Shown here piece after piece: positions 1,218-62,532 of a stretch of 64,000 nt of DNA (positions are counted from its first letter, which is position 1; each line of letters starts with the position of its first letter). Origin of the DNA: Tribonema minus (taxonomy: Eukaryota; Sar; Xanthophyceae; Tribonematales; Tribonemataceae). Where the stretch lies: contig JAFCMP010000132.1 in the NCBI GenBank assembly GCA_017506865.1, positions 62,001 to 126,000 on the forward strand. Reading direction: 5' to 3'. The notes beneath the pieces are model-generated. The model did no database searches. It saw only the letters and a list, made by a program, of their open reading frames with translations, and had not been told where the DNA came from. A program made the translations under genes and the position numbers.

Positions 1218-4200
1218 ATGGACGACTCGCTGTACGATGAGTTTGGCAATTACATTGGACCGGAGCTACCGGACAGCGAGGCGGAGGGCAGCAGCGAAGA
1301 GGAGAGCGAGGAGGAGGAGGATGTTGAGCAAGAAGACCAGGTAATTGCAAAAAAACTTTACTTGGATCCAGCTGCGTTGAGTTTTGGGGCTTGAAAGTGC
1401 GCCGACAGTGCAGACCATCAGGGACCATGTTCGCCAGCAGTCATGGCTGTGCTGTGTTGATGAGGCGATGGCGGATGACGACGTGCAATTCGATGCCGCA
1501 GTGCACTGTAGCATCAGCAATCATGATTAGCGGCAGATCGTAATTGAGAGGAAGGACGATAGCACCACAGCATGTTGCAGCATCAGCATTCGAAAATTCA
1601 GTCGATACCCAGCCTGTTTTCATGGACAAGCACAGAGTCAAACCATCATGGTGACGTGTGCAGATAGTAGCAAGCCCAGGTAGCCCTCAAAGCCAAGCAC
1701 GGATCAGGGTTGCAATGGCATGCCCTACACATGCCGATGAGATCATGCAGGAAGCTCCACATGCTTTCAGGCAGCTGGTGCTCTGCCGCATACCGCAACT
1801 TAGGCATCGGTCACTGCTATTAAGATGATGTATTGACGATTATAAGACAACAGCGGGCCCACTTTGCATATTTGGCGGATGATGCCATATCACGAAATCT
1901 GCCCAATGCACGCCTTCCAACCTGGTCCTTGTGCTCTGTCCATCAGATGACACCATCATTTGCAGAGATCAACTGTGCATCACGGCAGCACAAGCGCGCG
2001 CTTGGCTACGTGATGTCACAGCCATCACTACATGATGCACCACTGGGGTAGTCAGCTGCAGCTGAGCGGTCGGCGCGCTGCGCGTAGTGCTCATGGGAGG
2101 CGGTGCTTGCAGGAGGCCGCCAGCACCTGATTGCTTGGCGGTCTCGCCCAGCAGCACACGCAAGCTATCGCTAATCGCCTTTCACCTGACAGTCTCAGAC
2201 ATCCTAAGTCGCTCTCGATCCGTGTCGGCGCTCAAGCGCAGGCTGATCACAGCGCTCAGCCGTGATTCTCACTCGCGCTGCGCTGCCTCCATGTACCACC
2301 TGTGTCATTCACCGATAATGCAGCGGGGAGCGTGGGGGGCGCCCTCAGGGGGGGGAGAGGGGGGCGCGCTGGTGAGCCGGGGGGAAGGGGGCGGCATTGC
2401 CCCCCCGGAGGCGACGGACTCCGACGCCATCGTTCTGCACGAGGACAAGAAGTACTATCCGGACGCGGCGGAGGTGTTCCCGGGGGCGGAGACGGTCACG
2501 CTAGATGAGGATGCACAGGGTATCGACGAGCCGCTCATCGCGCCCGTGCGCACCAAGACGTTCAGCAAGCTGGAGGAGACGCTGCCGGAGACGAGGTATG
2601 TAGGTATTGGCATGCACTTGACCGGCACGTCGCGTGAACGATGCGTTCGCGTCTGGTGCGTGTCTGGTTGTGCATGCGCGTTGCTGACACGCGCTCAAGC
2701 ATGAGCGACGGGGCCGTCCTGCGGCTGCACGCGCAGCTGTGGTGCTAGTGACTTATCGTCCAGTGCGCGGAGCTTCTGGATACACACATGAAGCGGTTCT
2801 GCGCTGCTGATGCAGCGCTTGCGGCGGATTGCAGAGGCATCACGTCCTTCCTTGAAGGACATCCTATCAAAGTAGGCTTTGCAGGTGACAGGTGACGCCA
2901 TTGTGTACCCCATCGGCTTCGTTGCCGACAGAGACAATGGCTGGCTGATGTACACCTTCCTACGTACTTGCTGAGCACGCGCAATCTCTTGGGTCAACAT
3001 AGGGCCTTTCTCTCCATTACTTGTCTAGAAACGCCCACCTTTGCGGCCCTTGAAGGAGCCGGCGGGCAGTTGCCGTTGAGGCGATTGATGACTTAGCCCG
3101 TATCATGGCGTTAGTGTAGTACCTCTCTCCCTATCTGGGGGGGGGGGGGGGGTAATGGGTAGCACATGGGCTAGGACCAGCATTGGAGTTGGCGGCGAAT
3201 AACTGTTGTTCTGCTCTCGTGTTGCTGAGTTTCGTGTGTCTACTGCTGCGATGAGCAAGGCGTGTTGCAGTCCTGTGGCGTAGCTCTCACATACGTGTTT
3301 GCAACCCACAGACCAGATGAGTACATATGCGTACATACATACACAACACCTACATAACCCATCACTTTCATACTTCAGTACACATGTGTAATGCGTGCAC
3401 ATACCTACATACCTTCTGCATACAGTATGAATACATACCCATACCTACATGAACATGCGCTATGACAGAGAACAATCTGGCGAAGCGTTTGCATCGGCAG
3501 ACATGTCGGCCTCCTTTATGCTGAAGTGTTGCAGATCCGCTTTTTTGTCCATGAACACATTGACGTTGGCCAGTAGTGCTGCCGTTGCTGAACAATGAGG
3601 AGTAACGCCTGCACGCGATCATGCAATGACAGCCAGCGCTGACGGCATTGCCGGCGGCATTGCCGGTCTAGCGTGTCCACATGGTCACTTTGTGCATCGC
3701 CAGCGTCACGATCATCAGGTGGCTGCGCGACGCGGACTGCACCCCGCTCACCCCCCAATCCCCTCGCAAAAGGGGGGGGGGGGGGGGGGGGGATGCACCA
3801 TTTCAAAGTTGAAGTTCATATCACTGTTCTTGCTCTTTCCCGTGCGGTCGTCGGGGCCCCGTCAGGTACAGCCTCGAGTTCCTGCCGTCGCTCATGACGC
3901 CGGCGCTCACCATCTCACAGCCGCTCCTTTGAACTTCACATCACTGCACTTCAACTTCATTGCCCCCGCCTCTTCAGGTACAGCCTCAAATTCCTGCCGT
4001 CGCTCATGGAGACGCCGGCGCTCACCATCTCACAGTCGTCGCTCTTTTGAACTTCACATCACTGCACTTCAACTTCATTGCCCCCGCCTCTTCAGGTACA
4101 GCCTTCAGTTCCTGGTGGCGCTCGTGGAGACGCCGGCACTCACACTCATTCCTGAATCGCTTACCCAAATCTTCTCTCACCAAACTTCAACTTCGCTTTC

Positions 4201-7200
4201 CAAACTTCAACTTCATTGTGCCCCCCCCCCCCCCTCCCCCCCCTTCCCCCCCCCCCCTTCAGGTACAGCCTCGAGTTTCTGGCGGCGCTCATGGAGACAC
4301 CCGCGCTGATCACACTCATGCCTGAGTCGCTTGCCCAAACTTCTGTCTTGCAAACCTTTGAAACTTAAGCTTTATTATTGCCCCCCCCCCCCGCAGGTAC
4401 AGCCTGGAGTTCCTGGCGGCGCTCATGGAGACGCCTGCACTCACACAGCTCACTTGGACTTTATATCACCACATTTCAACTTCATTCCCCCCTCCACACA
4501 CACACCCTTCAGGTACAGCCTGGAGTTCCTGGCGGCGCTCATGGAGACGCCCGCGTTGCTTGCTCGAACTTCTGCTGTCGTACCAAAGTTCAACTCTATT
4601 GCCCGCCGCCCCCCCCCCCCTTCCCCCTTCTTCCCCCCCTCAGGTACAGCCTCGAGTTCCTGGCGGCGCTCATGGAGACGCCCGCGCTCATCCGCAACGT
4701 CGCGCTCGCGGGCCACCTCCACCACGGCAAGACGCTGCTCGCGGACGCGCTGCTCGCGGCAACGCGCGCCGCGCCGCGCGACGCCGCGCGCGAGCCGCGC
4801 CTCACCGACACGCGCCACGACGAGCAGGCGCGCGGCCTCAGCATCAAGTCGACGCCCGTGTCGCTCGTGCTGCCGAGCGGCGCGAGCGGCAAGTCGTACC
4901 TGGTGAACGTCGTCGACACGCCGGGGCACGTCAACTTCGAGGCGGAGGCGGCGGCGGCGCTCGCGGCATGCGACGGCGTCGTCCTCGTGGTGGACGCCGT
5001 GGAGGGCGTCATGATGCAGACGGAGAGGCTCGCGCGCATCGCGCTCGCGGGCGGGCTGTCCGTGTGCCTCGTCATCAACAAGGTGAGCGGAGCGCTGCAA
5101 CTGTGCGGATAACTGAAGCTGAAGCGTGCCGGTTAAGCGCTTGTGCGTATGCGGTTGAAGTTGAAAGACATGATGCAGACGGAGCGCGCCTCGCGCGCAT
5201 CGCGCTCGCGGGGGGCTTGTCCGTGTGCCTCGTCATCAACAAGGTGCGTCACAATGTCAACTTCAAGTGCATTGATGCTGCCGACTGCGCTCTCCAAGTC
5301 CAAGTGTATACGTTCTGAAGTTGTGCCAATTCCGCCAATCGCACTCACCGGCGGCTTGTCCGTGTGCGTCGTCAACAACAAGGTGCGCGGAGCGTTGCAG
5401 TGTCAACTTCAAGTGCACATGTGTGCATGCACTTGAAGCTGAAGGAAGGTGCGCGGCTTGCTGAAGTAGAAGCCTGCCAGTTGCGCGCGTCGCGGTCGCT
5501 GGCGGGCTTCCCCTTCTGCTTCAAGACCAACAAGGTGCCTGGGCGGGGGGGGCGTTGCAAGTTCGCCTTCGTGTTGTTGACGTGCGCACTGCGCTCGCGA
5601 GCAGCCTCTCTACGCGCGTGTCATGATCGACATTGTGCAGGAATTCTGCACGTGGACTGATGTTTGTGCACGGTCTCATCAGCGACTACTTTGTCTGATG
5701 AAGCTGAGTTCGCGCTTCGCGCCTGCGGGCGGCCTCTCCGGTGGAGTCTCCGTGCGCCTGGCGTTGAGGTGCGGTCCTGCATCCTCAACTTCAAGTTCAT
5801 TTCATTGATTGTATTGAAGTGGAAAGAAATGCACGCTGTGCACATGGCGGCGTACTGCGCTGCGCCGGCGGCGCATCGTGGCCCACACAACGGCGCACGC
5901 AGCTGTGACAGCAGCTGATCACACAGCAAACCTCAAACTTGCTTGAGTGCTTGCAAGGCCCGCGCCGTTTCGAACGAGATTGAGGAGGTGACGCTGTGCA
6001 GCAGTGACAGTGTGCGCCTGGCTCATTACAAGAGCCTCCACAAGAAGCCAGGAACTAGCATGGGGCATCGCCTGCCAGCATGGGAGGTGCTTGTTGCAAA
6101 ACTGCAGTGCCGTCTTCGCACCATTTTTAACACGCGATATGCGTGCTTGCTGTTCTGTGCGCGCTGCTCTGCTCATCAGGTTGATAGGCTCATCCTGGAG
6201 TTGAAGCTACCGCCGCGCGACGCGTACTTCAAGTTGCAGCACACCCTGGAGGAGGTGAGTTGAAGTTGTGGTGCTCAGCATGCACTGTTTTCTATTGCAG
6301 CATGCCGATGGTCAGTGAGACAGTCACGGAACCTGCATTGCGCGTATGCTGCGTCATGCAGACATGCGAATCAGTAAGCTTTTGGTACCGCTCACAGTTT
6401 CGCTGTGCAACCTCGCGTGCTAATGCCAGCAAAGGCTTCTTCTGCCTTGCTTCACGGTTGTCAAACGTAGGGTCAGGGTTAGGGTAAACATTAAGGCTTC
6501 TTCTGCGTTGCTTCACAATTGTCAAACGTAGGGTCAGGGTTAAGGTATACTGTATCGGCCTAGGGTTAGGCTTGTCACTTTACTGCCCAAGGGTTTCATT
6601 GTTCACCTTAGCGCGCGAGGGTCCCGTTCTTGCTGATGCGAAAGGCTGACCAACGAGCATGAAACCGGTCGCAGGCTTGTAGTATGCATCTGTTGTCAGT
6701 ACGATGTGTAATGGAAGTTGCAACAGGATACCTTGGAGCACGCTCTGAATTACACAGTCACTGCATATTGCGCCCGCGTCGCAAGTCAAAGCGCTGCTGG
6801 CGCACTGCAGGGCGGGCGTCGCAAGCGCGCCGCCGCGTCCCGACACACACATACTTTACAATTATGTACACACTTTGTTTGAACCATATCACCATGAAGC
6901 ACTGCCGTTCATCAACTATTGATATCTTCACAAACACATATCCGCCGCGCACTGCGCGCGCGTCGCAGGTCAACGCGCTGCTGGGCGGGCGTCGCAGGCA
7001 ATGTGTGTTGCACATACGCGGTGTGTCAATCTCTCGGTAAACATACATGTGTATCAAGACACGCGCAAGACTGTGCCGCCACTCCGTGCGTGCGCACCGC
7101 GCTGTCGGCGGGCGCGGCAGCCGCACCCCGACACACTTATACTTTGCAAATATATAGACACTGTGACGAACAAACCACCATAGAACCGATGATGTGTTCA

Positions 7201-10200
7201 CCCATACCCGTTGCACTCCGCGCGCGCACACGGCGCAGGTCAACGCGCTGCTCGCGCGCTGCTGGGCGGGCGTCGCGGGCGCGCCGCCGCGCCTCGACCC
7301 CGCGCGCGGCAACGTCTGCTTCGCGTCGGCGCTGCACGGCTGGTGCTTCAGCGTCGGCTCGTTCGCGGCGGCGTACTGCAACTACCACGCGGGCAGCGGC
7401 GTAGACGCGCGCGACCTCACGAAGCGCCTCTGGGGTGATGTCTGGATGGACCCCTGGACGCGGCAGTTCCGCAAGGCACAGCCGCCACCGGGGCCCGCCG
7501 GCGAGGAGGCGGAGCGCTCTTTCGTGCAGTTCATCCTGGAGCCGCTGTACAAGATCTACTCGCAGGTGACCGATGTGTTTTTGAAGTACTTGGAGTAGAC
7601 GTGACTTTGTCTTGGAGTAGACTTTGTCGTTGATGGGTGGAGACTGTGGACGCGGCAGTTCTGCAAGGCGCAGCCGCCGCCGGGGCCCGCCGGCGAGGAG
7701 GCGGACCGCTCGTTCGTGCAGTTCATCCTGGAGCCGCTGTACAAGATCTACTCGCAGGTGAGTGACCGAGCGGTTTTGAATTACCTGAAGTAAACACTGT
7801 AGTGAATGGGTGGAGACCGTGAATGCGGCAATTTAAGGGCGCAGCCGCCGCCGGGGCCCGCCGGCGAGGAGGCGGAGCGCTCACTCGCCCAGTTCATTTT
7901 GGAGCCGCTGTACAAGATCTACTCGTAGGTGGCCGATGGGTTCAGTGCTGAGGTAGTTGGAGTATAACTTGAAGAGGTGACCGAGGGGTTGAGGGGCTGA
8001 ACAACTGCGTTGTTGAAGTACTTGAATTATAACTTGAAGTATTGAGGGAGCATAGGGAGCGGACAGAGGGTCAGCGCACCACTGACGAGCTGCGTCATCA
8101 ATTCTATTTTAGTGGTTGGGTGGAAATGAATGCGGCAGTTCCGCAAGGCGCAGCCGCCGCCGGGGCCCGCCGGCGAGGAGGCGGAGCGCTCTTTCGTGCA
8201 GTTCATCCTGGAGCCGCTGTACAAGATCTACTCGCAGATGACTGAGGGGTGGGACAGGTTGAGTAGTGCTTTGAACGCAGGCGACCGGTGGGTTAACCAA
8301 GCTGCGTTTTCGAGGTGCTTGAAGTGTAACATCAAGTACGGCATGAGCGTACGGGAGAGGTCAGAGGGTCCGTGCGCCATCGACGAGCAGCGCCATCAAA
8401 TTTATTGTAGCGATTAGGTGGAAACCATGAACGCGGCAGTTCCGCAAAGCGCAGCCGCCCGCTGGTGACCAGGCGGAGCGCTCGTTCATGCACTTCATTC
8501 TGGAGCCGCTGTACGAAATTCACTCGCAGGTGACTGAGCTGAAGCGGGGCCCAGCTGCTATGCATGTATGTTGTTTGTATCTGTGGATTGACGCGAAGGA
8601 GACGGTGGGCTCAGCGCTGTGTCAGCGCCGCTGCTGCCGCCGCGTGCCGCATCATGATGCCCCGCCATTCCCTGCTGCTGCAGCTGCTGCTGCCGCCGCC
8701 GAAATTCCAGCCTATGGCTAGCTGCCCACACCCCCCTGCTGCTGCTGCTGCCGCCGCGGGAAAACGCCCCTTCGCTGCTGCTGCTGCTGCTGCTCCTGCT
8801 ACTGCTGCTGCTGCTGCAGCTGCTGCCGTTGCTGAGAAACGCATCCCTCTGGCCGGCTGCCCAAACATCCCCGCTGCCGCTGCTGCTGCTGCCGCCGCCG
8901 CCGAAAACACATCCCTCTCGCTGGCTGCTCAACCACCCCCGCGACTGCCACTGCTGCTGCTGCCGCCGCCGCTGCTGCCTCCGGTGCTGCCGCTGCCGCT
9001 GCTGCCGGAGCGCAGGTGCTCGGCGAGGAGCCCGACGAACTCCAAGCAACGCTCAGCGAGCTGGGCGTGCGCCTCAAGCCCAAGCAGCTCAGCCTGAACC
9101 CCAAGCCGCTGCTGCGGCTCGTCCTGGGGCAGTTCCTGGGTTCAACGGGCGGCTTCGTGGACATGGTGGCCAAGTTTGTGCCGTCGCCGGTCGCCGCCGC
9201 CGCCGAGAAGGTATGTATCATACAGCGTCACTGTCTGACTCGTGGCCAATGACTGCAGCAGCGGCGACCATGATTATTGGTGGAAGGCACTTGCGGCTGG
9301 CAAACCACTCCTTGTTACCTAGAGCTCCACGATCTTCTGATTCGTTCCTATGTACGCTTTCGCCAAGGGGCACGTCTAGCGTTGCTTCACCCCCGTGACG
9401 CATACATAGCCACATGCACACAGTGGTGGGCGCTGCCTGGCCTTAATGGCGAGGAACGCTGCCGAGATGTGGTGGCCTCGCCTCTCCGGTGAACCACGAC
9501 GAATGCATGCGACGGCACGTTCGCCGCCGCCGCCACCATGAAGGTACGCCTGCTTTGCGGTGTTTGTAGTAGCATCGCCTCGGGTGAAGGATGACGAATT
9601 CGGGGCGATCGGCGCGGTGCAGCTGCGCTGGCTGGCGCAAGTCACTCACTCGCTGGCGCAAGTCACTCACGGCAGCGAGCTGATGACCAGAGCGCACCAA
9701 TCAGAGGAATGAGGCGGCGCTGGTGCAGGCTTCTGGTAGTGCACGGCGCTGCGGTGGTGGTCTGCCCACTGGTGGAGGGAAGTTTCTCAGGGCCTCTGAA
9801 ACGTGCACCCCTTGTTCTTTTCCATTGCAAGATGTAGCACTTGCCTTCAGTCGACAAGAGTGTCAAGGCCATGGTGTGACGGTGTGCTTAGGGTCACATC
9901 TGGCCGCCAGCAGCACGCTCTACATGCATGTAGACATGTACGAGCTGTGTGCGCGGGTCTCAGATAGCCAGTTGCCAAACGTGCCGACGCAGAATCACAT
10001 CTAAAAGCCCCCCCCCCCCCTGCCCCCCCATTTCTTCCCTTGCGGCGCAGGTGGCGCGCATCTACACGGGCGCGCCCGACAGCAGCGAGTTTCAGGCCAT
10101 GGCGCGCTGCGACGCGCTGGGGCCGCTCATGATCAACGTCGTCAAGCTCTACTCCATGCCGGACGGGCAGTCGTTCGTGGCGTGGGGCAGGTGACGCTCC

Positions 10201-13200
10201 GCGCGCACGCTGAGCGCTGCTGCATGTTGAACTTCAACTTGAGTCACCGCATGCGCGCGAGGTATTTCGGCCATCATGGCCGCAGGCGTAGCGTTGTGCT
10301 TGGAAATTGTTGAGCGCTGACATATTGTTGAAGTTGAAGTGGTAGTTTGTGGCGCGCGGCGCGCAGAGATGCGGTGCGCGTCGCTGAGCACCGCTGCCAT
10401 GTTTTCGAGGTGGAGTGTCACACCTTCGCACCGCCTTCTGAGAGTGCTGCCTTGCGCTTGGGCCTTTGACTGTGTGTGTGCATGTGGACGTGATTTTGAT
10501 GCCAACGAATACGGATTAGGGTTAGGGGATAGTTGAGGTCGGGGTGACAAAAACGCGTCCACGGTGAGCGCGGCGCTGCATCTGCAGCCGTCAATTTTCA
10601 CCTCTGCAGCGCTTTGAGATCCTCATGGTGACAATGCCCATGCATGCTGTGTCGATCTGCCCTCGCGTGCGTCTGCTATTAAGTTAAAACATTCTCATGA
10701 ACTGGCGCACAGTGCAGGCCTCTGTACCCTCCCCCCCCCCCGCCCCGGCCCAGCAGTTATTGCCTGCTAAGGAAATGGCCTCGCTGTCAAGTCCATGGGC
10801 AGAGTGTGGCCCACTCCTATCAGCAGCTTGCAGCCGCTGCGCGAACTTCAATTCGCTGCACACCAGCCCTGTCGACCATGCCTCGCAGCCAGCTAACACT
10901 GCCGGGCGGCTGCTGCCTGTTCTCCGCGTGCGTTCGGCAGAATATACTCCGGGACCGTGCGGACGGGGCAGAAGGTCCGCGTTCTCGGCGAGACATATAG
11001 GTGAGCGCTGCTGCAGCCGCGCGTTGCAGTTCACCTGCCCGTAGGGGTATGTGTCATACTTTTCGAGTGTATGTATCTCAGTCTCCAGGGTGCTGTTGGT
11101 GACCAGCAGGAGGGCGTACAGGTGAGCGCTGCTGCAGCGGCGCGCTTGGCCCTGTTTGCCCGTATGGCATGTAAGTAGTATGGTACTGGACCTGCCTCGG
11201 TCTCAAAGGTGGGGGCAAGCAGCATGGTGTTGCACCTGCCTCGGTCCTGGGATTAACGGCGAGCGCGATCAGCGAGGTTCTTAACTCGCTGCCGCACGCA
11301 CCCCGCTTCAGCGTGGCATACGCTCTGTGGCAGCGCTCAGCGGCGCACGTCAATGCTAAACAGCAGGCTGCGGCACGCCTTCGCTTTTGTGCGCACGTCA
11401 CGACGTCGCTGGGCTTGAAGTTTGCGCGACCGCCGGTGCGCCCAGTGCACGATGCAGCGTTTCTTCCCAGAGAGTCGCTCGAGCCACAGCTGTTGCGATT
11501 GTTGGCAGCAGGGGTTCACTTCCCCATGCGCGTCGCGTTCGCGACAGGATGACAGTCAGCAACCGAAGGAGCTCATGGCGCCAGGCGCCGTCGACATTCG
11601 TGGGTGCTCAGGAGCTCTGAGCTGCTGAGAAATGGACGACCGACGCGGCATAGGGCTAGGACCAGGGTTAAGGCTTGGGTTAGGGCTAGGGCCCCAACGC
11701 GGCCACCAAACGATCGCTTACACAATTGTTCTGCTCTGTTGTTTCTTGCTGATGAAGCTGCAACTGCACCGACCACCCTGCGTCAGAACTTTGCACGCGT
11801 GTTATTTGCCCTGTCTCTCGCACGCATCGCCTCCGCCGCCCAGCCCGGAGGATGCCGCCCAGCCCGGAGGATCAAGAAGACTACAGTAGGCGGTCAGCGC
11901 AGCGTTAGGGTTAGTATTACGTGAGGCTAGGACCCATGTTAGGGTTGAAGTGTCAGTGCTCGACCGCAGTGCCACAGCACGCGCTGACCGTGCTGCGCTT
12001 TCATCCTAGCTCGCTCACGCGTGCCGTCCGCCCCTCGCCATGCGCAATGTCAATTGCTACCCCTAGCCTGGAGGACGACGAAGACTCAGCGGTGCGGGAG
12101 GTCACCGCGGTCAGCGTCCCCCATCCTGGCTCGCTCACGCACGCCATCCGCTTTTCTGATTGTTTTCTGTCGTCATGCGCATCCGTCTTCGCTGCCCAGC
12201 CTGGAGGACGACGAAGACTCGGCGGCGAGCGCATGCACAGAGCTCAGCCCCAGCGCCACAGTCCTGTGGAATGTAGAAACCCCGCCATACATGCGTGCTG
12301 ACTGAACTGCGCTCCCATCCTAGCTCGCTCACGCGTGCCGTCCGCCCTTGCCGTGCGCAATGTCATTGCCACCCCAGCCTGGAGGACGACGAAGACTCTG
12401 CGGTGAGGGAGGTCACCGCGGTCAGCGTACCCGGCGGGCGGCACCGCCTCGATGTCACGCTCGCCAAGGCCGGCAACTGGGTGCTGCTGGAGGGCGTCGA
12501 CGCCAACATCACGCGCACCGCCACGATTACCGACGCGGAGGTGAGTTTTGTACTTCTTTTGAAGATACACACAGCCCTGGACTTGAAGCAATTTTTACGT
12601 GTTGGGATGGGACACCGGGTATTGGATGGCACCTTGAATCTGATTGTCGACGCCCACATCACGCGCACCGCCACCATTACTTGCGCGGAGGTGAGTTTCA
12701 TATTATCTTTATGAAGACAGCCCCGGCACACTTCACTGATAAGTTATGGGAGAAGTTTTGTGGCGACATTGGCGTGATTCAGTTTGTGGTACGACGCGCG
12801 CTGACGCAGTGGTGATGAGAGTGCAGCGCCAATGTGACGTGCCGCTCGGAGCGCTGCTGCTTGCTGGAGGGCGTCGACGCCAACATGACGCGCACGGCCA
12901 GGATTACTGACGCGGAGGTAAGTCTTGTACTTTCATGAGGACACACTCGGCCCTGGACTTGCAGTAATCCTCACGTGTTGGGATGTGCCATCAGGTGTTT
13001 GATGACACCACGAATCTGATGACACCCGGTATGTGAAACGTTGGCTTCAACATCACGCGCACCGCCACCATCACGCGAAAAGGTAAGCTTCATACTTCTA
13101 TGAAGACCACAGCCCCTGGCAAACTTCACTGATGCAGTATTGCGAATAAACTTCGCAGCGACGCCAGCGTGGTGCAGGTTGTGGCACGGCGCGCAGTGGC

Positions 13201-16200
13201 AGTGGCGATGAGAGTGCAGCTTCGTTTTTCAGCCCCTATGACCTATTCGCGTAATAGCGGCAGTGGTCGGCGACGTACATGCGCGCAACTGCAGCGCTGG
13301 CCAACACATCTTCATGCTCCTTCAAGCATGTGTTGAGCGCAGCTCCTGATGAGTGCTCCTATGGCACCTCTGCACGGCGCACACGATGTAGTCGTCGTGT
13401 GCCAGCCGCCGCCGCTGCTCGACAGAGTGTATGGGTAGGATGGGCGCCGTCTTGCGAACCATAATAATTGCGTCTCCCAGCGCCGTCCGCTGCGGCACTT
13501 CGCGCTCCGATCTGCAACTGGCCCTCAATGTTGAAACAAGGCCTATCTGGGCAAGCAGAACTCTGCTGTGCAGGCAGCACTGCACTGCACACCACCAGAT
13601 CCATGCAAGAGCGATCCATTGTGCAGGCGCAGTCAAGGCAGGTGAAGCCTCCACTTGTCACCGCTCAGCAAGCCCTAAGCATAGGGCACACGCGTTGCTA
13701 CCACAAATCCGTAAACTGCCGCAATCACGTGACCGCCGCACTCAATACCTACGTACTCTCGCACACGCGCAGGGCGCCGACGACGTGGCCATTTTCCGGC
13801 CGCTGCTGGTGGGCAACGTGAGCGTTATGAAGCTGGCGGTGGAGCCGCTGCGCCCCGCGGAGCTGCCCAAGATGGTGGAGGGGCTGCGGCGCGTCAGCAA
13901 GACGTACCCCATGGCCGCCACCAAGGCAAGCCTGTTTTGACTGAGATGTCAGTGGTGTTCTGTGCTATATGCTCATGTGGCGTACGTGACGGCACTGGGG
14001 CAGGGCGGTGGTACGATGGCGCAGGTGCTGCTTGAAGTATCGGCAAACTGGGGCAGAACGTGGGGGTTGGGTGGTTCCGGGCGGTATCACAATGTGCCTG
14101 GCCAGGCCGGCTGTGGGTGGGCTGCGGCACGTCAGTAAGACATACCCCATGGCCGTCACCAGGGCAAGCTCGTGTTTCATGGGACGTCGACGATGGAAAC
14201 GAACCGAAAGATCATGAGCTCTAGGTGACAAGTGTGGTTAGCCGTCTATGTGATATTTTGTGCTATTCTTTGAGTATGATGCGGGCGCGGGGGGCGCTGC
14301 GACGCGTCAGGCAGCTGTACCCCGTGGCCGCCACCAAGGCAAGCCTGTTTTTCATGGGATGTTGCTACTACTTGTGCTGTGCTTTTCAAGTGTACTGCGG
14401 TCACGCGGGGGGGCTGTGGCGCGCCAGCTAGAGGTACCCCATGGCCAGTTCAAAGGCAAGTATTTCATTGGATGTCTATGCTCTTGTGCTATATGCTCTT
14501 GAAGGTACTGGCACACTCGGCAGAACGGGGTGGTTCAATGACACAGCGAACTTGAAGTACCAATAACAGCATACTGAAGTAACGGCGCACCGGGCACAGC
14601 GTGTGGGAAACAAAAAAGGACTGCAGGCAGAGCGTGCGGCTTTGATTGGTACTCTCATGTTTGGTGCATGACCTACCTCCCATTCGTGCAGACGTCATTG
14701 AGACCGGTTCCCATACTGTATAGCCTTTCACTAAGTAGGGCAGGTAGACAAGAGCGGCGAGCGCACATACAACCTGGCAGGACTCATCAACAAGAGTACT
14801 GACGCAGCGCTTGCTCACGCCTCTGGCAGGGCTCGGCAACAACAGTACCCTCAAGTACCCTTGCGCTGACACCTCCCCCCCCCCCCCCCCTTCCCCCCAC
14901 GCATCCGTACCGACAGGTGGAGGAGAGCGGCGAGCACGTTATCTACGGCACGGGCGAGCTCATGCTGGAGTGCGCCATGCACGACCTGCGCGAGATGTAC
15001 GCGGAGATCGAGGTCAAGGTCAGTCGCGCATAGAGCAGTATACATGTGTGCACGCGATGCGTGGACGAGTGGCTCGTCATGTCCTGCGCCCGTCGCATCT
15101 CCACGCACGCGCAACGTTCATCATTTGACCGCGCCCGCTGCGCGCGCGCGCGTCGCCCAAGGTGGCCGACCTGAGCTGCACGATCCGTGAGCCGTGTTGA
15201 ACTTGAACGGTGAGGCGATCATGACACCGCGCTCCTGCATTTTCCACTCGCCCGCGCGCCGCTCCAGGTGGCGGACCCGAGCTGCACATTCCGCGAGACG
15301 GTCGTCGACACAAGCAGACTCGTGCTCCACGTCATGCTCCACTTCAATGTTGAAGCTTGTAGTGTTACCGCACCCGCTGCACTGTTCACATGCGCGCGCG
15401 CGCCGCCCAGGTGGCGGATCCGAGCTGCACGTTCCGTGAGACGGTGATCAACAGGGGCAGAGTGCCTGTGCTCACTTCCAATGTTGAAGTTCATTCTGCT
15501 AACGCGCCTGCTGCATCTCTGCGCGCGCCCCAGGTGGCGGACCCGAGCTGCACGTTCCGCGAGACAGTGGTCGACACGAGCAGCCTCAAGTGCTTCAGCG
15601 AGACGCCCAACAAGAAGAACAAGCTCACTATGATCGCCGAGCCGCTGGACGAGGGGCTCGCGCAGGACATTGAGATCGGCGCCGTGTCGATTGACTGGGT
15701 GAGCGCTGCCGTCTTGCTGTTGTGACCCACTGTCGTAGAGAGTCGGAGTCGAGTAGATGAGGCAGAGTCGCTTGACGAGGGGCTCGCGCAGGACATTGAG
15801 ATTGGCGCCGTGTCCATCGACTGGATGAGCGCTGCCGTTTGAGTAGGGCCAGAGACGAGTAGGTGAGGCAGAGTCGCTGGACGAGGGGCTCACGCAGGAC
15901 ATTGAGATCGGCGCCGTGTCCATCGATCGGGTGAGCGCTGTCGTGTGCTGTCATGACTCGTTGTTGTAGAGTCTGAGTCGAGTATGCGTGGCAGCGAGGG
16001 CCTTGCGCATGACCTGGAGTGCGGCGACAGTGTCCATCGATGGGGCGTTCCTCCGCTAGCACCACCTCCCTGCTGCTGTAACCTGCCCCACGCAGAGTTG
16101 GAGTCCAAGGAGGTGAGGTAGCGGTGATTTGTCGGCTCCTAGGACCGATTGCGCCATGATCGCCGAGTCGTCAATCAGGGTGCCACGTACCGTATTCACC

Positions 16201-23965: not shown

Positions 23966-23969
23966 TCGA

Positions 23970-26057: not shown

Positions 26058-26564
26058 GCTGTCGCTGTCACGTGTGTGTTGTGGTGTGGTGTGGTGTGTG
26101 TGCTGTGTGGGCACGTTTATTCTGGTCTCGGGGGGATGGAACCACCACCTCGAGAATGAATAAAATTCTTACCCCCAAAACCAGGTCAGATATATACACA
26201 TGTACCCTGATTTTTGGCTGTGTAACCTCAATAGCAGCTTCAAATCTTAAAAAGCAGGCACAGAGCACTGTACATGTTGGCTCGAAATGCCTGAGGTTGG
26301 CCGCATATTGCGATGTCCGGTTGGGACTATGCACACAAGGATACCACATTTGGCGGGTTAGGCAGCACAAGCGGCCTGCATGCTTGGCTGTGCGAGTTGC
26401 ATCTGACGGCGCGTGCGCATCATGATGCAGTGCATTGCCATTCGTCTGCGCAAGCTGTGTGTTGTTAGTTTATACCGCCCAACAGAGGGCAGGCCCTTTT
26501 TCGTGGGCGTTGCTTGCTCGGGATGTGTACTCCGTCTGCAGCAGGCCCCACTGTAGAGTTGTCA

Positions 26565-46300: not shown

Positions 46301-49300
46301 TCTCCTATTATCGGCGGCAGCACAAAGAGTATGCAGCGACCATGCCCTGCTCCATTCCTGACTGCAAACGCTCCCTCCTGTCGTCTCGCCTCGCTGCCAG
46401 GTTCGTCGCCAGCACGACCGACGCGCTCGCGGGCGTCTTCACCGACTCCGGCGCCGCACCCGTGTACCACCTGCGCGGACTGCGCTACGCGAGCGACCGC
46501 CGCAAGGAGGCGGCGTCGCCCGCCGTTGGGCGCCTGCTCGCCGTGGACCTGTTCCGCGTGGAGGGGCCCTTGGGGAGGGTGAGCGCGCGTTGCCGTCGCA
46601 TGCCTGCTGCGTCATGGCGTCGCAAATGCACGGAGAGCGCGTGCTCGCAAGTTGGGATGCAAGAGACCGCGTGAGTCATTGGAGGCCGTGGCGCCTGCCT
46701 TGTGGCGGCCGCTCGCTGTGGACTTGTTCCGCTTGGAGGGCCCCCTGGGGAGGGTGTGCGCGCGCAGCTGCAGCGTAGACAAGAAGCCTGTAGGGGAAAC
46801 TGCGCGCTTGCAAGCTTGGCGAAAAACACGCAGTACACTTTGTTCTTGGTTCGAACGTTCCAGTGCCTGCCTTGGGGGGCAGATGCGCGTTCGCCGAATG
46901 ATGCGCGCTTACGCGGTGATCAGGCAAACAATGCAGGTCCACTGAAAAAAGCTGTGGTGCTTTTCAAGGGGCGGCTGCTTGCTGTGCATCTGCTCCGGGT
47001 GGAAGCCCCCTGCCCCGAGAGGGTGAGCGCAGCGCCGCCGCACAGAGGAGCACGCACGCTCGCAACTCCTAAGAAGATGTAAAGAAACACCTTGCTGCGA
47101 TCACAGACGCAGCGTTGGCGTTTGACATCGCGGCGATCGGGCCCCCTTCCATGTGGAGTGCCCCCCTTCAGCAGGGCGAGGGAAGCCGGCCCTCTGCGTG
47201 CGCTCTGAGGCGCGACAAGTTATGATACGCGCCACGTCAGGCGGCGCTGTGTGCCGCGGGGTGCCTGCCGGCCGTATTCTCCGTCGGAGGATTAGAGGAC
47301 ATGAGAATTGCATATTGCATACTTGCAAAAAACAGTAAAGGAGCGCGTGCTGCCGTGCGCGCGTACCCGTCGCGACGCTTTTTGCACAGCGACAGCAGCG
47401 CTCTGAGACGTGTCTAGCAGCGCTCGGCGAAGGCGCTGCTGCGCGCAACTAACGTGCACCCCATCTATATTAACCCCTTTGTTCACTCGATGACACACAT
47501 GGTGATTGCTGAAGAGCATCTGATTCCACATCAATGCGGGGCCCTGTTTTATATTCAGGTGGACAACATTGCTCGGTAGGGGCGCTGCTGCGCGCGACTG
47601 ACGCGCACCCCATCTATGTTTGATCCCTCTATTCACTCAATGACACACGTGGCGATTTGTTGCATAGCATCTGATGCACATCAACGCGGTTCGGTGGTCA
47701 GGTGGACAACATTGCGCGGCAGGGGCGCTGCTGCGAGAGGCTGGCGGCGCTCGCCCCCACGCTGCCGCCCGACCACATCCTGTTCATGGTCAACATCCAG
47801 GTGCGCATACATAGAGCATGCTTCAATATAGTGTATAGGGTTGCAAAAAAGCGTATTTCCCCACACACATACGCCGTATTTAAATACGCCGTATTTCCAG
47901 TACGTATTTGACGTATTTGACGTATTTGGGCATATTCTGGCACACGCAATGTAGCATATCACACAACCTGGCCATCAAGTTCAAATTGAGGTTCTTCACA
48001 CACAGCGGGGCGCGCGTTACTAATGCCTCCTCTACTGGTCGGCACTCAGGGTCAAAAGCAGGGTTAGGATGAGGGTCGGGGTCAGTGGTAAGAGCTCGAG
48101 CAGCCACGACGACGAGTTACGATACGTTGCACAATCGTGAGGTGGCGATGGCAGACACCTCTGATGATGGCGGTAGCGGTGCTGGCGAGGCTGCTGCACG
48201 TGCAACATTCCTGTCAAGCGAGCATTGCTGCCTGTGCGGCCATCCATCGGCTGTGTGTGACCATCCATCGAGTATCGAAGAAGTTATGTAGATGCGCGTG
48301 CACAGAATAAACGACCATCGGTTGAAGTTCGGCTTAATTGAAATTGCGAAGGAAGAGAAGGGCGTGCCGACCTGTGCAGCAAGGGGGCGGAGGCGACGTT
48401 GCCCACACTGCCTTGTCAAGCACCCCGTAATCATTTGTAAAGGGGTACAGGCGTGAGAGGTAACGAGTAACGCTCGAAAGCATCGGAAAAGCCAACTCCT
48501 GATGCTGCTGTCGCGCGTGCTGCCAGCGCCAGCAAAGTAGTGCCCGTAGCAGGTCAGCGGCAACACCGTATTTGCGGCGTATTTGCTGACACAGATACGT
48601 ATTTAAATACGTATATACGCCCCCGCACTTAAGTACGCATACGGAGTTTTGCAACCCTAATAGTGTACTTCAAGTACTCAAATTTTTGTATGCTTTGAAC
48701 TGTCCGTGTGTGGCCCACAGCAGCATGGCAGGCGCTGTTGCCTGCTCAGAGGCTGCGGCACAGGCACTCAACCAGGACTGAGATGCGCACTGATTTGCAA
48801 GAGCATACGTGTGTGACCATGACGATCGCATCACTGCGATATGGGTGGTACTGGCCGCCGCTGGTACTACGCATGACCAGCATACGTGGTGCACTTGTGC
48901 CTCAACGCAAGGTGAATCGCTGCGGATCTTGTCCCCGGCATCTACAAGTGCATTGGAGCTCACTGTCGCACTTCAACTGCCTTTGCCTGCGGCAACGGCA
49001 GCGCGCTGCACACCGTACTGGTGACCGCAGCCCCTGTACGGCAGCACCCTGGGGAAACAAGCGCCAGCAGCACACTTCGATCCCGGCAAATGCCGTTGGT
49101 GACTTCGAACTCAAGCCCTTCATCATAGATGCCATTTTGAAACTGAACCCCCATCCCCCCCCCCCCCCTCCCCGCAGATGCCGGGCACCCCACCTATCAG
49201 CCTGGTGGCCTACTGGTCGGTGCCAGTAGGCCCCCCCGCCTCTGGCGCCCCCGACCCTGATGGCGCAAGGCGCAAGTTTGCACACCTACTTGCGCGCTTC

Positions 49301-58100: not shown

Positions 58101-61100
58101 CTGCTTTGCTAGCACACGCCACGCGAATTGTGGCAAAGCACGTCACGCCACGAGAGCAACATGGCGGCGTCTGATGCAAAATGGGACTGGGGCTCACGGT
58201 TGAGGCTAGGGCTGCAGATGCTTTATGGAGCTCCTGAGGGCCACGCTCAGGGGCAGGGTCTGGGCCAGAGGTGCAGTCTGACGCTCCATGCCGACTCGTA
58301 TGCTTCCTCTCACATGGGCGCCGCGTTCCATAATGTTAGCGTCTTCGTGATACATATGCCTGCCATGATGTCAGTGTCTTCGCGACGTTTGTGCGGCGCT
58401 GCGCCCAAGCGCGCAAGCAGGATCCGACGCTTTTGCACTCCGCGCCCGATGGCGCCGCCTCCTCCCTCCCGCAGGGCGCGGAGAACTCGTCGCTCGCGGA
58501 GAAGCTGGCGGCGTACGCGACGCAGTGGGAGCTGCGCGAGAAGCACCGCGCGGCGGAGGCGCGCAGCTGGCAGTTGGAGGTGCAGCTGGCGGAGGCGAAG
58601 CTGGCGCAGGCGCAGCAGGTGAGGCTTTGCCGTTCGTTGAAGTTCAAACAGGGCGCACGGGGGGGAGGGGGGCGGGGGGGGGCACACGGGGGCAGCACGG
58701 GCGGGCTGAGACTTGGGTACAGAGACGATGCTGGCGTGGGCGCAGCAGGTGGTGCCCGTGTGTTGAAGTTTAAATTGGTGTGTGTGTTTGTGTGTGTGGG
58801 GGGGGGGGGGGGGGGGGCGGGTGGGCTTAAGCTCGGTGACAGAGGCGGTGCTGGCGTGGGCGCGGTAGGCGAGGCCAGGGCGGGCCAAGTGGGCACGCAG
58901 TGCGGGTTGAGGGCAGGCAGGCATGTTTGCACGTTGGGGCCGTTGTGGCAGTGCTCAGTTGTAGCACAGTTGAAGTAACGGGACAGGCGAAGCTGTAGGG
59001 AAATTGGCCTGTGTCTTGTCATGCGCTCACAGCGCGGGCCGACCTTAGGTGTTGCACGCGTAGGCAAGACTGGCGCAGGCGAAGCATCAGTGGAGATTGT
59101 GGGCGCGCGCTGTGCGGTGCTGTGTGAGGGCAGGGCAGGCATGTTCCAGACGCGCGTTGAGCCTGCGCAGGCAGTGCTCAGCTGTGCGGCTCACAGAGGC
59201 GACGCGAGCGCGGGCAGCGCGTGGGTCAGGCTCACGATTGGTGACATGTGCTCAGGCTGGGGGTCTGCCCCTGGCCACAGCCCTGACAGATACAGTCTAT
59301 AAAACCACAAGTAGATGTACTTCAAGAACTTGCCGTAGTAGAGCAAAAAAGTGTCTATATTCTTCAACTTGATTTGCTGTCAACCAATGCAACCAATACA
59401 AGCTAGGATGAATATTGCTGACATAATTGAGGAGGCAAGGTCGGCGCCGCCGGCGCCGCCGCACAGGCAAGTGCAGGTTTGCTCGGGAAGTAGCTCAGAG
59501 CCGCAGTAAGAGGGACGGTGGGGCAGGTGTAGTGCTACACCATGCCACACTGCACACAGCATGTACGCCAGCTGATGTACCCGCAGCAGGGGCCTCCAGC
59601 ACCGCGCGCATACGCTGCAAAGCATGGTTTCATCACCCACCAGTCTACTCCCCAACACAGCTTCAAGTTTTGTCATGTGCTCGACACCTGTCGACGTGGC
59701 TGCTCAGCGAAGTGCGAGCTTTAATGGCGGTTTTGGCAGGATTGGTGGCGGTGCGAGCAGAGCAAAGCAACAGCGCACATGCGCGTTGCAGCACCCACAC
59801 CGCTCGAGTGGAAGTTGTTTTGGGTCAGTTCGCCTCAGCATGCGGACACGCCATCATGCATGGTTTACGCCAGTCACCAGTGCCGCTGATTCAAGCACCG
59901 CTTTTCCCCTGGTATAGTCACATGCCTGCATTAATGCAAATCATTACCTTGTACATATTTTTACACATGTACTCATATCAAGTGCGCGTTTGCAGGTGCT
60001 GGCGCACGAGCAGCAGCGGCGCGCCAACCTGCAGGAGCAGCTGGACGCACGCAAGGCGAAGGCCGCGTCGCTGCTCGACCAGGCAAGTGACTCAGATTTA
60101 GGTCTTGAGAATGTAGGACTCCTGAGCGTCCAAGGGCTTGACAGGTGCTCAGATCTAGAGTATTGAGCATGTAGGACTCTCGAACTTTAGAGGGCTTGAC
60201 GCGTGCTCCAAGCTGTACATGCTGTGAGATGCTTCAGCAATTTCCTCTTGACGTCGGCGCGTGTGAGGCTTCGAGCAGCCAGCTGCGTGGCTTGCATAGG
60301 TGACTTGCTACATACTTTGTATGATGGCACTGTTTGACTCGTGGCCAATAACTGCAGCAGCGGTGAGCACGGTTATTGGCGGAAGGCACTTGCGGCTAAC
60401 CACTCCTTGTCACTTAGAGCTCTACGATCTTTTGATTCGTTTCCGTGAGTTCATGGGATGATGTACGTCGTCTGAGCATCCAGGCAGCCCCCCCTTCCAT
60501 GTCAGGTACATGCATCCTTTTGTGACCATAGTTTACGCACGTCTCATAAGCGTATCGCGCCCTGCAATCTTGCATCTCTGCAGATGCACATGTACCGCGA
60601 CAAGGTGCAGGGCTACGAGGAGACGGTGAGCAGCAACGCTCAGCTGTGGCCGGAGCTGGAGCGGCGCTGCCAGGAGCTGCGCGCATTGGCGACGTCCGTG
60701 CAGGTGAACACGCTAGTAGCGTACCACTTTGAAGGTTTGAAGTTTGTCGGACGTGCACACTGCGCAGGACGGGTGTCGCACAGCATCGAGCATTATGGCA
60801 GGTGGGTACACAGCAACGCTCAGTTGTGGCCGGAGCTGGAGCGGCGCTGCCAGGAGCTGCGCGCGTTGGCGACGTCCGTGCAGGTAAATGACGCGCCGCA
60901 GCGCAGTACATTTGAGCTGCTGGGGACGCTGGCGACGAGCCTAACGCAGGTCCGCTCTCACTGCGCGACGCAAGGCGCATGTGCACGCTCCACAGCGCTC
61001 GGCGGCTGTTGCCTGCCCGCCTCGCACTTCAGTAAGTGTACGCAGCTCATCAACGCCATAGCCATTTATGACCGCCAATTCGCCTCTCACCGCGCGCTCG

Positions 61101-62532
61101 CGGTCGCCTCCGCAGGCGGACAGCACGCAGCCAGCTCACCAACACCATGGCTAAATTCAGACTCTCAAGCACCTTCTCACCAATTTCCCCATTTTCAAAC
61201 GCTGCAGGCGGACAGCACGCAGCGGCAGCGCGCGTTGGCGTCGCGCGACGTCGCCCTCCTCGAGGCGTCCAAGCTGCTGGCCACATATGCTCTTGCTCAC
61301 TTCACCAAGTGTACACACCTCACCCCCTGATGACCCCTAATCCGCCTCTCACCGCGCGCTCGTGGTCGCCTCGGCAGGCGGACAGCACGCAGCGGCAGCG
61401 CGCGTCGGCGTCGCGCGACGTCGCGCTCCTCGAGGCATCCGAGCTGCTGGCCAGCAAGCGCGCGACCCTCGCCGAGGCACGCCGCCTCACGGACAAGCTC
61501 GCGGAGCTCGCGCGCAGGCTGCAGGTGCAGCGCGACGCGCAGCGCAAACTTCAACAGCAGACGCTCCTCGCCGCCGCCGCTTCAGCTGGCGGCGGTGAGC
61601 CGCCTGCGTCGCCGCTTCATGCGGAAGTATGGGCGGCAACGGCGACGGCGCCGGTGGCGGCAGCAGCGGCCGGCGCTGAGGCAGCAGAGCCTGGTGCAGA
61701 TGCGGCATCGCCATCATCGATTGCGGCACCGGTGGCAATACATGCTGTGAAGGCAGTGGCGACAGCATCACCAGCAGTCGTAGCCCCAGCAGTACCGTCG
61801 ACGCCAGCCGTGGCACTGCCTCCATCGGCACGGGCAGCGCCAGCGGCGGCTGCAGCTGCGGCGGCAGCGCCGCCGATAGCGGCGCAGGCGGCAGCGGTGC
61901 CAGAGGCGGCAGCGCCCGCGCCGGCATTGCGTGCTGCCGCGGCGCCTGCGGCGGCCGCGTCTGGTGCTGCCAAGCACGCGCCGTCAAAGAAGGCAGCGGC
62001 GGCGGCGAAGCGCGCCGCAGCAAAATCGCAGCCTAAGGCGGCCGCCGCCGCTGCCGCCAAGCTGGCGGCTGCCGCTGCAGCGGTGACGGCGCCGGCAGCG
62101 GCAATGGCTCCTGTTGCCGCCCCGCCTTCGCCAAGCGCCGTGATGGCAGCAGCGGCGGCGACCGCGCCGCCGTCGCCGCCGCCGCTGTCGTGCCCTTTGA
62201 CGCCGCCACATTGCAGCTCGAGCGCTGCGCTCCCCGGCGGCGCTGCTGCCGCCAGCGGCTCGCCGCCGGCAGCGGCGCCGCTGCTGTCGCCGCAGCTCAG
62301 CGACGACGCGCCTTCGCTCACATGCGGCAAATCGGGCAACGGCGCGTCCATCGAAGTGGCGTTTCCGCCATGTGATGGGGACCCGCTGGATGGAGATGGC
62401 GCAGGGGCGAACAGCTCAGGGGATGATGGCGGCGGGTGGGAGAACAGGGAGCAGCACAGCAGTGAAATTGCTGCGGATGCGGCAGCGGCGGCGCTGGCGG
62501 AGAGCATGGCAAGCCTGGTGCTCATGTGTTAA
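55136..62532 (+). CDS. taxilin-family coiled-coil protein (8 exons)
   Basis: Taxilins bind syntaxins and act in vesicle trafficking in animals. Exons read: 55136-55474, 56857-56910, 57269-57346, 57885-57953, 58475-58618, 59996-60082, 60584-60703, 61378-62532; total 2046 nt, 681 residues, all phase 0. Family blocks: KLEELCRLLQ (start of the taxilin domain), DFETAVNDVKKRLEVQN, NSSLAEKLAAYATQWELREKH, QLEVQLAEAKLAQAQQ, HEQQRRANLQEQL, YRDKVQGYEETVSSNAQLW and LAELARRLQVQRDAQRKLQQQ. Residues 1-80 are basic and Pro-rich. Residues about 375-660 are Ala-rich low complexity, not part of known taxilins. Intron 6 starts with GC. Several introns carry exon-edge copies. A small extra exon in the 55475-56856 intron cannot be excluded. 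Confidence 0.87.
60083..60084 (+). other. GC donor of taxilin intron 6
   Basis: Exon 6 ends ...CTGCTCGACCAG and the intron starts gcaagtga. This is the second GC-AG intron in the window, with an otherwise consensus donor. Confidence 0.8.
60318..60447 (+). repeat. dispersed ~135-bp repeat, copy B (taxilin intron 6)
   Basis: Partner of 9215-9352: same orientation, shared landmarks GACTCGTGGCCAATAACTGCAG, GTTATTGGCGGAAGGCACTT and CACTCCTTGTCACTTAGAGC. A small deletion removes GGCA relative to copy A. It contains a short CCAAT..ATTGG inverted pair. Confidence 0.8.
60805..60883 (+). repeat. donor echo of taxilin exon 7
   Basis: A near-perfect copy of the last ~78 nt of exon 7 (SSNAQLWPELERRCQELRALATSVQ) ending at 60883 with a gtaaat donor; the real exon ends at 60703. 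A weaker third copy of the end (GTLATSLTQ) lies around 60920-60950. Confidence 0.92.
61110..61290 (+). repeat. acceptor echoes of taxilin exon 8
   Basis: Two copies of the start of exon 8 (ADSTQRQRA.ASRDVALLEAS.LLA) follow AG upstream of the real exon (61378). A short one lies at about 61118-61135 and a long one at about 61207-61283. The long copy is good enough to be a usable alternative acceptor; reading on from it stays open into the real exon 8. Confidence 0.9.

What the first reader, a model, noticed from the sequence alone, without database searches (positions are those of the whole stretch)
1218..62532. Splice-junction echoes: arrays of exon edges with their splice sites in introns of all three genes
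At most EFTUD2 exons, and at several exons of the CRAL-TRIO/EDR2_C and taxilin genes, the flanking intron holds 1-6 extra copies of the exon edge plus its splice site. Acceptor-side copies carry only the start of the exon and lie upstream. Donor-side copies carry only the end and lie downstream. Unit lengths are about 105-310 bp. Copies near the exon are usually the most intact, so new units seem to be born at the junction and decay outward. Tandem-duplication models of intron gain predict exon-like sequence at intron ends, but I know of no described genome where junction-centred arrays are this general. They could reflect replication slippage at junctions, a repair or gene-conversion process, or selected decoy splice sites.
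Basis: seen in the sequence. Interest (0 to 1): 0.88.

Follow-up and report, generated by a model that had tools for sequence, protein, structure and literature searches.

The report
Exon-edge duplicates piling up in introns
In this alga, stretches of roughly 100-300 letters that straddle the border between a gene's coding piece and the neighbouring intron have been duplicated side by side again and again, leaving decaying copies of exon edges in introns; the effect is real and widespread, but the copies look like by-products that splicing tolerates rather than working parts.

Summary
Confirmed. With EFTUD2 exons 5-17 fixed by a transcript-derived protein (700 of 700 residues), 35 intronic copies of exon edges lie at 13 of 32 junctions; all 35 cross the junction. 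Over 20 sampled genes, 54 of 222 junctions carry 93 copies, 90 crossing. Controls: expected side 52 of 220, inverted 0 of 220, wrong side 3 of 182, other genes' introns 0 of 222, exon interiors 0 of 84. The side rule follows from geometry: of two tandem copies, only the one still joined to the rest of the exon is spliced. Copies decay at all codon positions, frames break, and splice dinucleotides are kept no better than the rest, so selected decoys are not supported. Junction-spanning families are 61 of 76 strong families, against 26-28% under uniform tandem duplication (51, 78); a real bias towards units that include exon sequence is likely, but ascertainment is not excluded. The cause is open; I favour recombination anchored on exon homology. 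Isolated boundary-crossing duplications are known; nine literature searches listed no genome-wide account.

The parts
1218..22966 (+). EFTUD2 (Snu114, U5-116K) gene, 17 exons: 1218-1340, about 2411-2595, 4644-5082, 6180-6254, 7239-7565, 9016-9210, 10051-10190, 10941-11000, 12378-12540, 13773-13925, 14917-15018, 15534-15698, 17272-17399, 19118-19244, 19940-20112, 21554-21739, 22786-22966
   Evidence: P0001 exact over 700 aa for exons 5-17; P0002-P0004 for exons 1-4
3856..4692 (+). acceptor-side array of exon 3 (starts 4644): 6 upstream copies of the first 43-64 nt plus AG
5010..5537 (+). donor-side array of exon 3 (ends 5082): copies at 5169 and 5338, weaker at 5483
6769..7298 (+). acceptor-side copies of exon 5 (starts 7239) at 6770 and 6945
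7452..8538 (+). donor-side array of exon 5 (ends 7565): 4 copies at 7647, 7807, 8132, 8425
11980..12432 (+). acceptor-side copies of exon 9 (starts 12378) at 12041 and 12195
12485..13220 (+). donor-side copies of exon 9 (ends 12540) at 12646, 12862, 13048
13875..14510 (+). donor-side copies of exon 10 (GC donor, ends 13925) at 14113, 14290, 14407
15148..15597 (+). acceptor-side copies of exon 12 (starts 15534) at 15148, 15254, 15396
15636..16040 (+). donor-side copies of exon 12 (ends 15698) at 15762, 15868
16960..17305 (+). acceptor-side copy of exon 13 (starts 17272) at 16960
20021..20849 (+). donor-side array of exon 15 (ends 20112): 4 copies at 20180, 20394, 20563, 20730
21223..21599 (+). 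acceptor-side copy of exon 16 (starts 21554) at 21223
22421..22841 (+). acceptor-side copies of exon 17 (starts 22786) at 22421, 22554
36844..37324 (+). CRAL-TRIO/EDR2_C region: donor-side copies of predicted exon 36746-36888 at 37003, 37213
   Evidence: predicted exon
43069..43468 (+). CRAL-TRIO/EDR2_C region: donor-side copies of predicted exon 42958-43140 at 43167, 43279, 43348
   Evidence: predicted exon
46150..46764 (+). CRAL-TRIO/EDR2_C region: acceptor copy at 46185 and donor copy at 46681 of predicted exon 46401-46578
   Evidence: predicted exon
47432..47746 (+). CRAL-TRIO/EDR2_C region: acceptor copy at 47555 of predicted exon 47702-47800
   Evidence: predicted exon
60631..61453 (+). 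taxilin-like gene: three strong pairs (60631/60811, 61068/61330, 61204/61374); which member is the exon is unproven
6432..6550 (+). contrast: intron-only tandem pair, 61-bp unit, 91%

Best explanation
Segments of about 100-300 bp that straddle an exon-intron border are duplicated in tandem, and some become arrays. The copy still joined to the rest of the exon keeps being spliced; every other copy becomes intron and decays without visible selection. This makes donor-side copies lie downstream with the exon's end, and acceptor-side copies upstream with its start. Duplications inside an exon alter the protein and are lost. Shown here: homologous units in one orientation, mostly shared breakpoints within arrays, spread over the genes sampled, decay at all codon positions, no use of copies in the transcript that covers EFTUD2 exons 5-17, and an excess of border-spanning families over a uniform model. 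Inferred: that the excess arises because unequal recombination or break repair is anchored on exon homology, introns being too different between copies and between strains, so that new units tend to include an exon edge and the exon edge stays more alike than the intron part.
For: 35 of 35 EFTUD2 copies and 90 of 93 copies in 20 genes (stricter score) include the junction. Expected side 52/220, wrong side 3/182, inverted 0/220, other genes 0/222, non-flanking introns 1/210, exon interiors 0/84. Within a family the exon-part length agrees to 3 nt in 31 of 65 copy pairs against 11% of pairs from different families. Copy-only changes fall on codon positions 1/2/3 as 67/55/96, real-exon-only changes as 4/1/22. 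Junction families are 13 of 20, 39 of 57 and 16 of 26 families in EFTUD2, 18 further gene models and PRPF8; at E<1e-8 13, 36 and 12 against 3, 9 and 3 intron-only and 0, 2 and 2 others; simulated uniform duplication gives 26-28%. Whole-unit pairs: 13 junction against 3 intron-only at 75% identity or more, 7 against 2 at 80% or more. TRF arrays in 21 gene models: 15 junction-linked, 6 intron-only, 1 exonic; the 15 have periods of 98 or more, the 6 of 89 or less (split seen afterwards). Intron parts of units are more diverged than exon parts although introns and third positions diverge alike in an eIF2-gamma pair (3.7% and 3.9%). P0001's leader matches the window's intron only in part (54.5% over 33 residues, 7 of them exon) where its exons are identical.
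Against: The youngest intact duplications do not clearly favour junctions: at 85% identity or more over the whole unit 3 junction and 2 intron-only, at 90% or more 0 and 2 (PRPF8 adds none). No mosaic tracts (68 copies tested, 1 with p<0.05), so conversion from the real exon is not shown. Exon-part and intron-part divergence do not correlate (rho +0.06): same-age models with the dispersion seen give about -0.4, with broader ages -0.6 to -0.7, and only models in which all copies are nearly equally old come near 0. Simple tandem duplication with uniform decay does not explain this. The third-position difference (16% against 6% at positions 1 and 2) exceeds the roughly 1.8-fold of a neutral model. 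Gene models outside EFTUD2 are predictions, and the sample is centred on conserved translation and splicing genes. No diverged second haplotype of the exon-15 region was found in the assembly and another repeated region is 100% identical, so exchange between homologues is untested.
Confidence: 0.6

Rival explanations
1. Uniform tandem duplication plus ascertainment only. Duplications arise anywhere; those in introns fade beyond recognition, and only those including a conserved exon edge stay visible. No junction bias exists.
For: If intron parts already differ at birth (for example copies taken from a diverged homologue), simulated junction families rise to 33-48% at 20% difference, 58-92% at 30% and 100% at 40%. 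Intron parts of observed units are strongly diverged. The window's intron differs strongly from that behind P0001. The youngest pairs show no junction excess.
Against: With introns decaying at the rate of the copies the model gives 21-28%, not the 71% (68 of 96) or 80% (61 of 76) seen when other classes are set aside. In the eIF2-gamma pair introns diverge no faster than third positions. TRF arrays, which need the intron part to be alike, are 15 junction-linked and 6 intron-only.
Confidence: 0.22
2. Junction-directed mutation. Something tied to splicing or to the exon-intron border itself (R-loops, nucleosome edges, stalled forks, transcription-coupled breaks) causes breaks or template switches there.
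For: Roughly 0.27 strict junction families per junction (61 over 222) against 0.02 intron-only families per 100-nt intron tile (15 over 710). Short exon parts, median 55.5 nt.
Against: Raw tile counts are less extreme: 52 of 220 junction windows against 81 of 710 intron tiles, which include tiles inside junction arrays.
Confidence: 0.12
3. Selected decoys or spare splice sites: copies are kept to modulate splicing.
For: 65 of 77 copies keep AG, GT or GC; exon parts are more alike than intron parts.
Against: Splice dinucleotide positions differ in 14 of 154 cells (9%), not less than the 170 of 2967 (5.7%) at non-degenerate exon sites. Copy-only changes hit all codon positions; 30 of 37 indels in exon parts break the frame. 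The transcript covering exons 5-17 uses none of the copies.
Confidence: 0.05
4. Assembly artefact or misread genes.
For: Tandem arrays are a classic assembly hazard; some contig ends are duplicated at 100%; most exon models are predicted.
Against: Copies differ from each other by 6-21% by codon position and occur on many contigs; misassembly would give near-identical units. P0001 confirms EFTUD2 exons 5-17.
Confidence: 0.01

Closest known systems
[quoted passage not shown] abstract and outline seen)
   Same: A tandem duplication spans an intron-exon border, and part of a former exon becomes intronic.
   Different: One case that creates a new intron. Here existing introns grow, copies number up to 6 per junction and about a quarter of the sampled junctions are affected.
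Novel Drosophila introns by tandem duplication of coding sequence with a proto-splice site (PMC2891723; abstract and outline seen)
   Same: Regional tandem duplication leaves exon-like sequence in introns.
   Different: There exonic sequence is duplicated and intronised at a new position; here nearly all copies include an existing splice site and the exon keeps its border.
Tandem exon duplication and mutually exclusive exons (recalled)
   Same: Local tandem copies of exonic sequence within a gene.
   Different: Copies here hold one exon edge and one splice site and are decaying; one possible whole-exon pair was seen in passing (L015).
Introner elements (recalled)
   Same: Repeated sequence with splice sites in introns of algae.
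   Different: Introners are one family spread over many genes; here each array resembles its own exon (0 of 222 hits in other genes' introns).
Minisatellites
   Same: Head-to-tail units that expand.
   Different: Intron-only arrays with 56-89 bp units also occur; the 15 junction-linked arrays have units of 98 bp or more.

Membership tests
Tandem (head-to-tail) duplication array | same orientation, adjacent units with homologous unit ends | tested here: met
   75 direct against 4 inverted pairs within 3 kb; mostly shared exon-side breakpoints; 15 junction-linked TRF arrays; but intron parts are often badly eroded
Intron gain by tandem duplication | a new intron at a new position | tested here: inconclusive
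   EFTUD2 exons 5-17 join without extra introns, 700 of 700 aa; intron positions of relatives were not compared
Intron gain by tandem duplication | duplication crosses an exon-intron border | tested here: met
   90 of 93 copies
Introner elements | related copies in introns of many unrelated genes | tested here: not met
   0 of 222 length-matched introns of other genes
Mutually exclusive or duplicated whole exons | both splice sites and an intact frame in each copy | tested here: not met
   copies carry one exon edge; 30 of 37 indel events in exon parts are not multiples of three; exception to be checked: L015
Selected decoy splice sites | splice dinucleotides conserved beyond neutral sequence | tested here: not met
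   14 of 154 cells changed against 170 of 2967 at non-degenerate exon sites
Concerted evolution by gene conversion | mosaic tracts identical to the donor | tested here: not met
   longest identical run as expected by shuffling in 68 copies; whole-edge replacement is not excluded
Selected decoy splice sites | effect on splicing in vivo | not testable with these tools
   no RNA reads

The most novel reading that the evidence does not exclude
A genome-wide process in this alga preferentially duplicates exon-intron borders and keeps the exon edges of the copies alike while the intron parts drift: a self-feeding engine of intron growth, in which the selected exon acts as a permanent homology anchor for recombination.
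Probability: 0.25. Interest if true: 0.82.

Novelty: new variant of a known kind. Interest (0 to 1): 0.6.

Why it matters
Boundary-crossing tandem duplications are known as isolated events in intron-gain studies. A genome in which about a quarter of sampled junctions show them makes the process countable: birth rate, decay, effect on intron length and on splicing errors. It also offers a natural assay: each copy is an unselected relic of a constrained exon edge. For annotation it warns that exon finders pick up false exons in such introns, as mine did.

Tried and rejected
Exon finding at low intron penalty called dozens of copies as exons, so a strict penalty was used; even there some copies are called exons (EFTUD2: 7659-7757 and others). 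Different-haplotype source of copies: proposed in note 3, tested by looking for diverged allelic contigs. None was found for the exon-15 region; the repeated C24/C166/C364 gene is 100% identical, i.e. assembly redundancy. The eIF2-gamma pair shows introns and third positions diverging alike, so a modest haplotype difference at third positions would not explain the intron divergence; P0001's leader keeps the idea alive. Independent copying of exon edges into introns: disfavoured, because breakpoints are mostly shared within families and only 20 of 90 intron parts fall within the shuffle range. Coding constraint on copies: disfavoured by indels and by polarised changes, though third positions remain in excess. 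Hypermutable introns: not supported; two EF1A genes with unalignable introns are ambiguous because they may be old. Protein searches for the taxilin and EDR2_C genes gave no hit.

Rows dropped before counts: predicted exons of 20 nt or less; first three predicted exons of L027 (wrong-strand gene; dropped from then on) and of L024 (small repeated exons; counted, dropped from then on); first predicted exon of L017 and L026 (from then on); a 30-nt and a 13-nt predicted exon of PRPF8. L025 was not modelled; L020 and L022 gave one and no exon. Score thresholds differ: 50, 64, and 56. An earlier count gave a wrong split of the intact splice sites (15/16 and 17/19); the listing gives 16 of 17 AG and 16 of 18 GT or GC.

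Literature: nine searches of the open-access library (lists capped at 10-25 papers, two empty) listed no paper that by title or start of abstract describes junction-centred arrays genome-wide. Two papers were opened as outline with abstract; the rest only as listings. Most subscription papers are not held.
Full report
The window lies in G000, a genome of 158.18 Mb in 554 contigs. The best EFTUD2 hits are a EukProt transcript protein, then Chrysoparadoxa australica and Ectocarpus, so it is probably a photosynthetic stramenopile (inference); the species was not identified. Coding third positions are strongly G/C (825 of 871 codons counted in EFTUD2).

Observation. A splice-aware alignment of transcript-derived protein P0001 fixes EFTUD2 exons 5-17 with 700 of 700 identical residues; orthologues P0002-P0004 place exons 1-4. 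Local direct repeats are abundant (75 pairs within 3 kb against 4 inverted). Searching each intron with its own exon edges gives 35 copies at 13 of 32 junctions. All 35 include the junction. The splice dinucleotide is kept in 32 of 35 (AG in 16 of 17; GT or GC in 16 of 18), and exon parts differ from the real exon by 51/710, 39/706 and 107/717 at codon positions 1, 2 and 3.

Generality. I fetched 20 stretches of 10 kb round translation-GTPase hits and a 30-kb stretch holding PRPF8, chosen before it was inspected. Gene models came from a small exon finder trained on EFTUD2, retrained on its own models for PRPF8 and the rest of the window; translated models read as TypA, EF2, EF1A, eIF5B, PRPF8 and others (my reading of the translations). 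With EFTUD2 this gave 20 genes and 222 junctions; 54 junctions carry 93 copies and 90 cross the junction (45 of 180, 81 copies, 3 not crossing; 9 of 42, 12 copies, 12 crossing). The sample is not random: it is centred on conserved translation and splicing genes. The control table, per query of up to 100 nt: own intron on the expected side 52/220; own intron inverted 0/220; flanking intron on the wrong side 3/182; non-flanking intron of the same gene 1/210; length-matched intron of another gene 0/222; exon interior 0/84; intron-interior tile against the rest of its intron 81/710. The last figure includes tiles that lie inside junction arrays.

Junction bias. Clustering local repeats into families: EFTUD2 13 junction, 6 intron-only, 1 other (counted by hand from the listing); 18 further gene models 39, 14, 4; PRPF8 16, 8, 2. 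At E below 1e-8 the junction and intron-only counts are 13/3, 36/9, 12/3, together 61 of 76, with 4 others set aside. Simulated uniform tandem duplication on 19 of the same gene structures, with exon-disrupting events removed, decay and the same detection, gives 26-28%, or 21-23% with more indels. The binomial test, run on a slightly lower count of 60 of 75, gives 1e-21. Whole-unit pairs in 19 genes: 13 junction against 3 intron-only at 75% identity or more, 7/2 at 80%, 3/2 at 85%, 0/2 at 90%. Whole-unit arrays by TRF in 21 models: 15 junction-linked, 6 intron-only, 1 exonic. If copies' intron parts were already 20, 30 or 40% diverged at birth, uniform duplication would give 33-48, 58-92 or 100% junction families, so ascertainment cannot be excluded.

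The side rule. For a tandem duplication of a unit that straddles an acceptor, only the downstream copy is joined to the rest of the exon; for a donor, only the upstream copy. Splicing that preserves the protein must use that one. So acceptor copies lie upstream with the exon start, donor copies downstream with the exon end. This is logic, not a mechanism.

Are copies functional? In 29 families with two or more copies, changes found only in the real exon fall 4/1/22 on codon positions 1/2/3, changes found in a single copy 67/55/96. Non-degenerate sites differ by 5-6.5%, fourfold sites by 17.8%. Exon parts hold 37 indel events in 4565 sites, 30 of them not multiples of three. Splice dinucleotides are intact in 65 of 77 copies that could be scored, and their positions changed in 14 of 154 cells, not less than exon sites. 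P0001, which covers exons 5-17, uses no copy. These look like decaying relics.

What does not fit simple tandem duplication. The intron part of a unit is mostly homologous but far more eroded than its exon part: exon side 83-90% matched up to 50 nt from the junction, intron side 63-78% against 49-66% for shuffled sequence up to 70 nt. Intron similarity of 0.155 corresponds to about 0.15-0.2 changes per site and lineage, against 0.059 at codon positions 1 and 2 of the exon part. The two do not correlate (rho +0.06); same-age models with the observed dispersion give about -0.4 and broader ages -0.6 to -0.7, while a model with nearly equal ages gives about -0.2 to 0 but too little dispersion (1.0-1.2 against 1.67). 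In an eIF2-gamma pair introns and third positions diverge alike (28/751 and 12/305), so introns are not generally hypermutable. P0001's leader, which continues upstream of exon 5 in phase, matches the window only at 54.5% over 33 residues, 7 of them exon, although its 700 exon residues are identical: introns of that strain or relative have diverged strongly. Taken together the exon edge seems kept alike or refreshed relative to its intron part. Exon-anchored unequal exchange or conversion would do this; no mosaic tracts were found, and the third-position excess is against recent conversion from the present exon.

Shared exon-side breakpoints (31 of 65 within-family pairs agree to 3 nt, against 11% between families; 50 of 65 to 8 nt, against 26%) suggest that most arrays grew from one founder duplication. 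Nearer copies tend to be less diverged (42 of 62 pairs).

Verdict. Real, widespread in the genes sampled and junction-centred; explained in its geometry by tandem duplication plus splicing; not decoys as far as tested. A true junction or exon bias is likely but not proven, and its mechanism is open.

Noticed in passing
window 20276-20333: The intron part of the first exon-15 copy is a dispersed repeat of about 58 bp with 41 other matches listed in the genome (40 of 75 candidates scored); the fetched places L036-L039 share longer repeats. Probably a small mobile element inserted in the array.
   Followed up: partly
C446 (L017 and L018): Two eIF2-gamma genes in inverted orientation on neighbouring stretches, 94.9% alike over 1792 bp with an intron.
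   Followed up: yes
C357 (L001/L028) and C17 (L002): Two EF1A genes: third positions 17% different, positions 1 and 2 0.5%, introns unalignable.
   Followed up: partly
C24, C166, C364: The same region occurs three times at 100% identity: probably redundant contig ends in the assembly.
   Followed up: partly
L015, reverse strand 5353-5410 and 5578-5635: A predicted 58-nt exon and a downstream copy differ at 8 third positions and at none of the others, and the repeat covers both splice sites: possibly two functional alternative exons.
   Followed up: no
L024, reverse strand 652-2780: eIF5B-like gene: a 42-nt exon-like piece in a repeat with a 130-bp period over 2 kb.
   Followed up: no
window 24080-27728 and 25258-29187: Two interleaved direct duplications of 0.8-1.0 kb, 74% and 79% alike, 2.7 and 3.1 kb apart, outside the exons modelled.
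   Followed up: no
window 33108-33167, 33921-33959, 38917-38954: Degenerate telomere-like TTAGGG-type runs.
   Followed up: no
window 7122-7238: P0001's first 39 residues continue upstream of exon 5 and match the window's intron only in part: probably a retained intron from another strain or close relative.
   Followed up: partly
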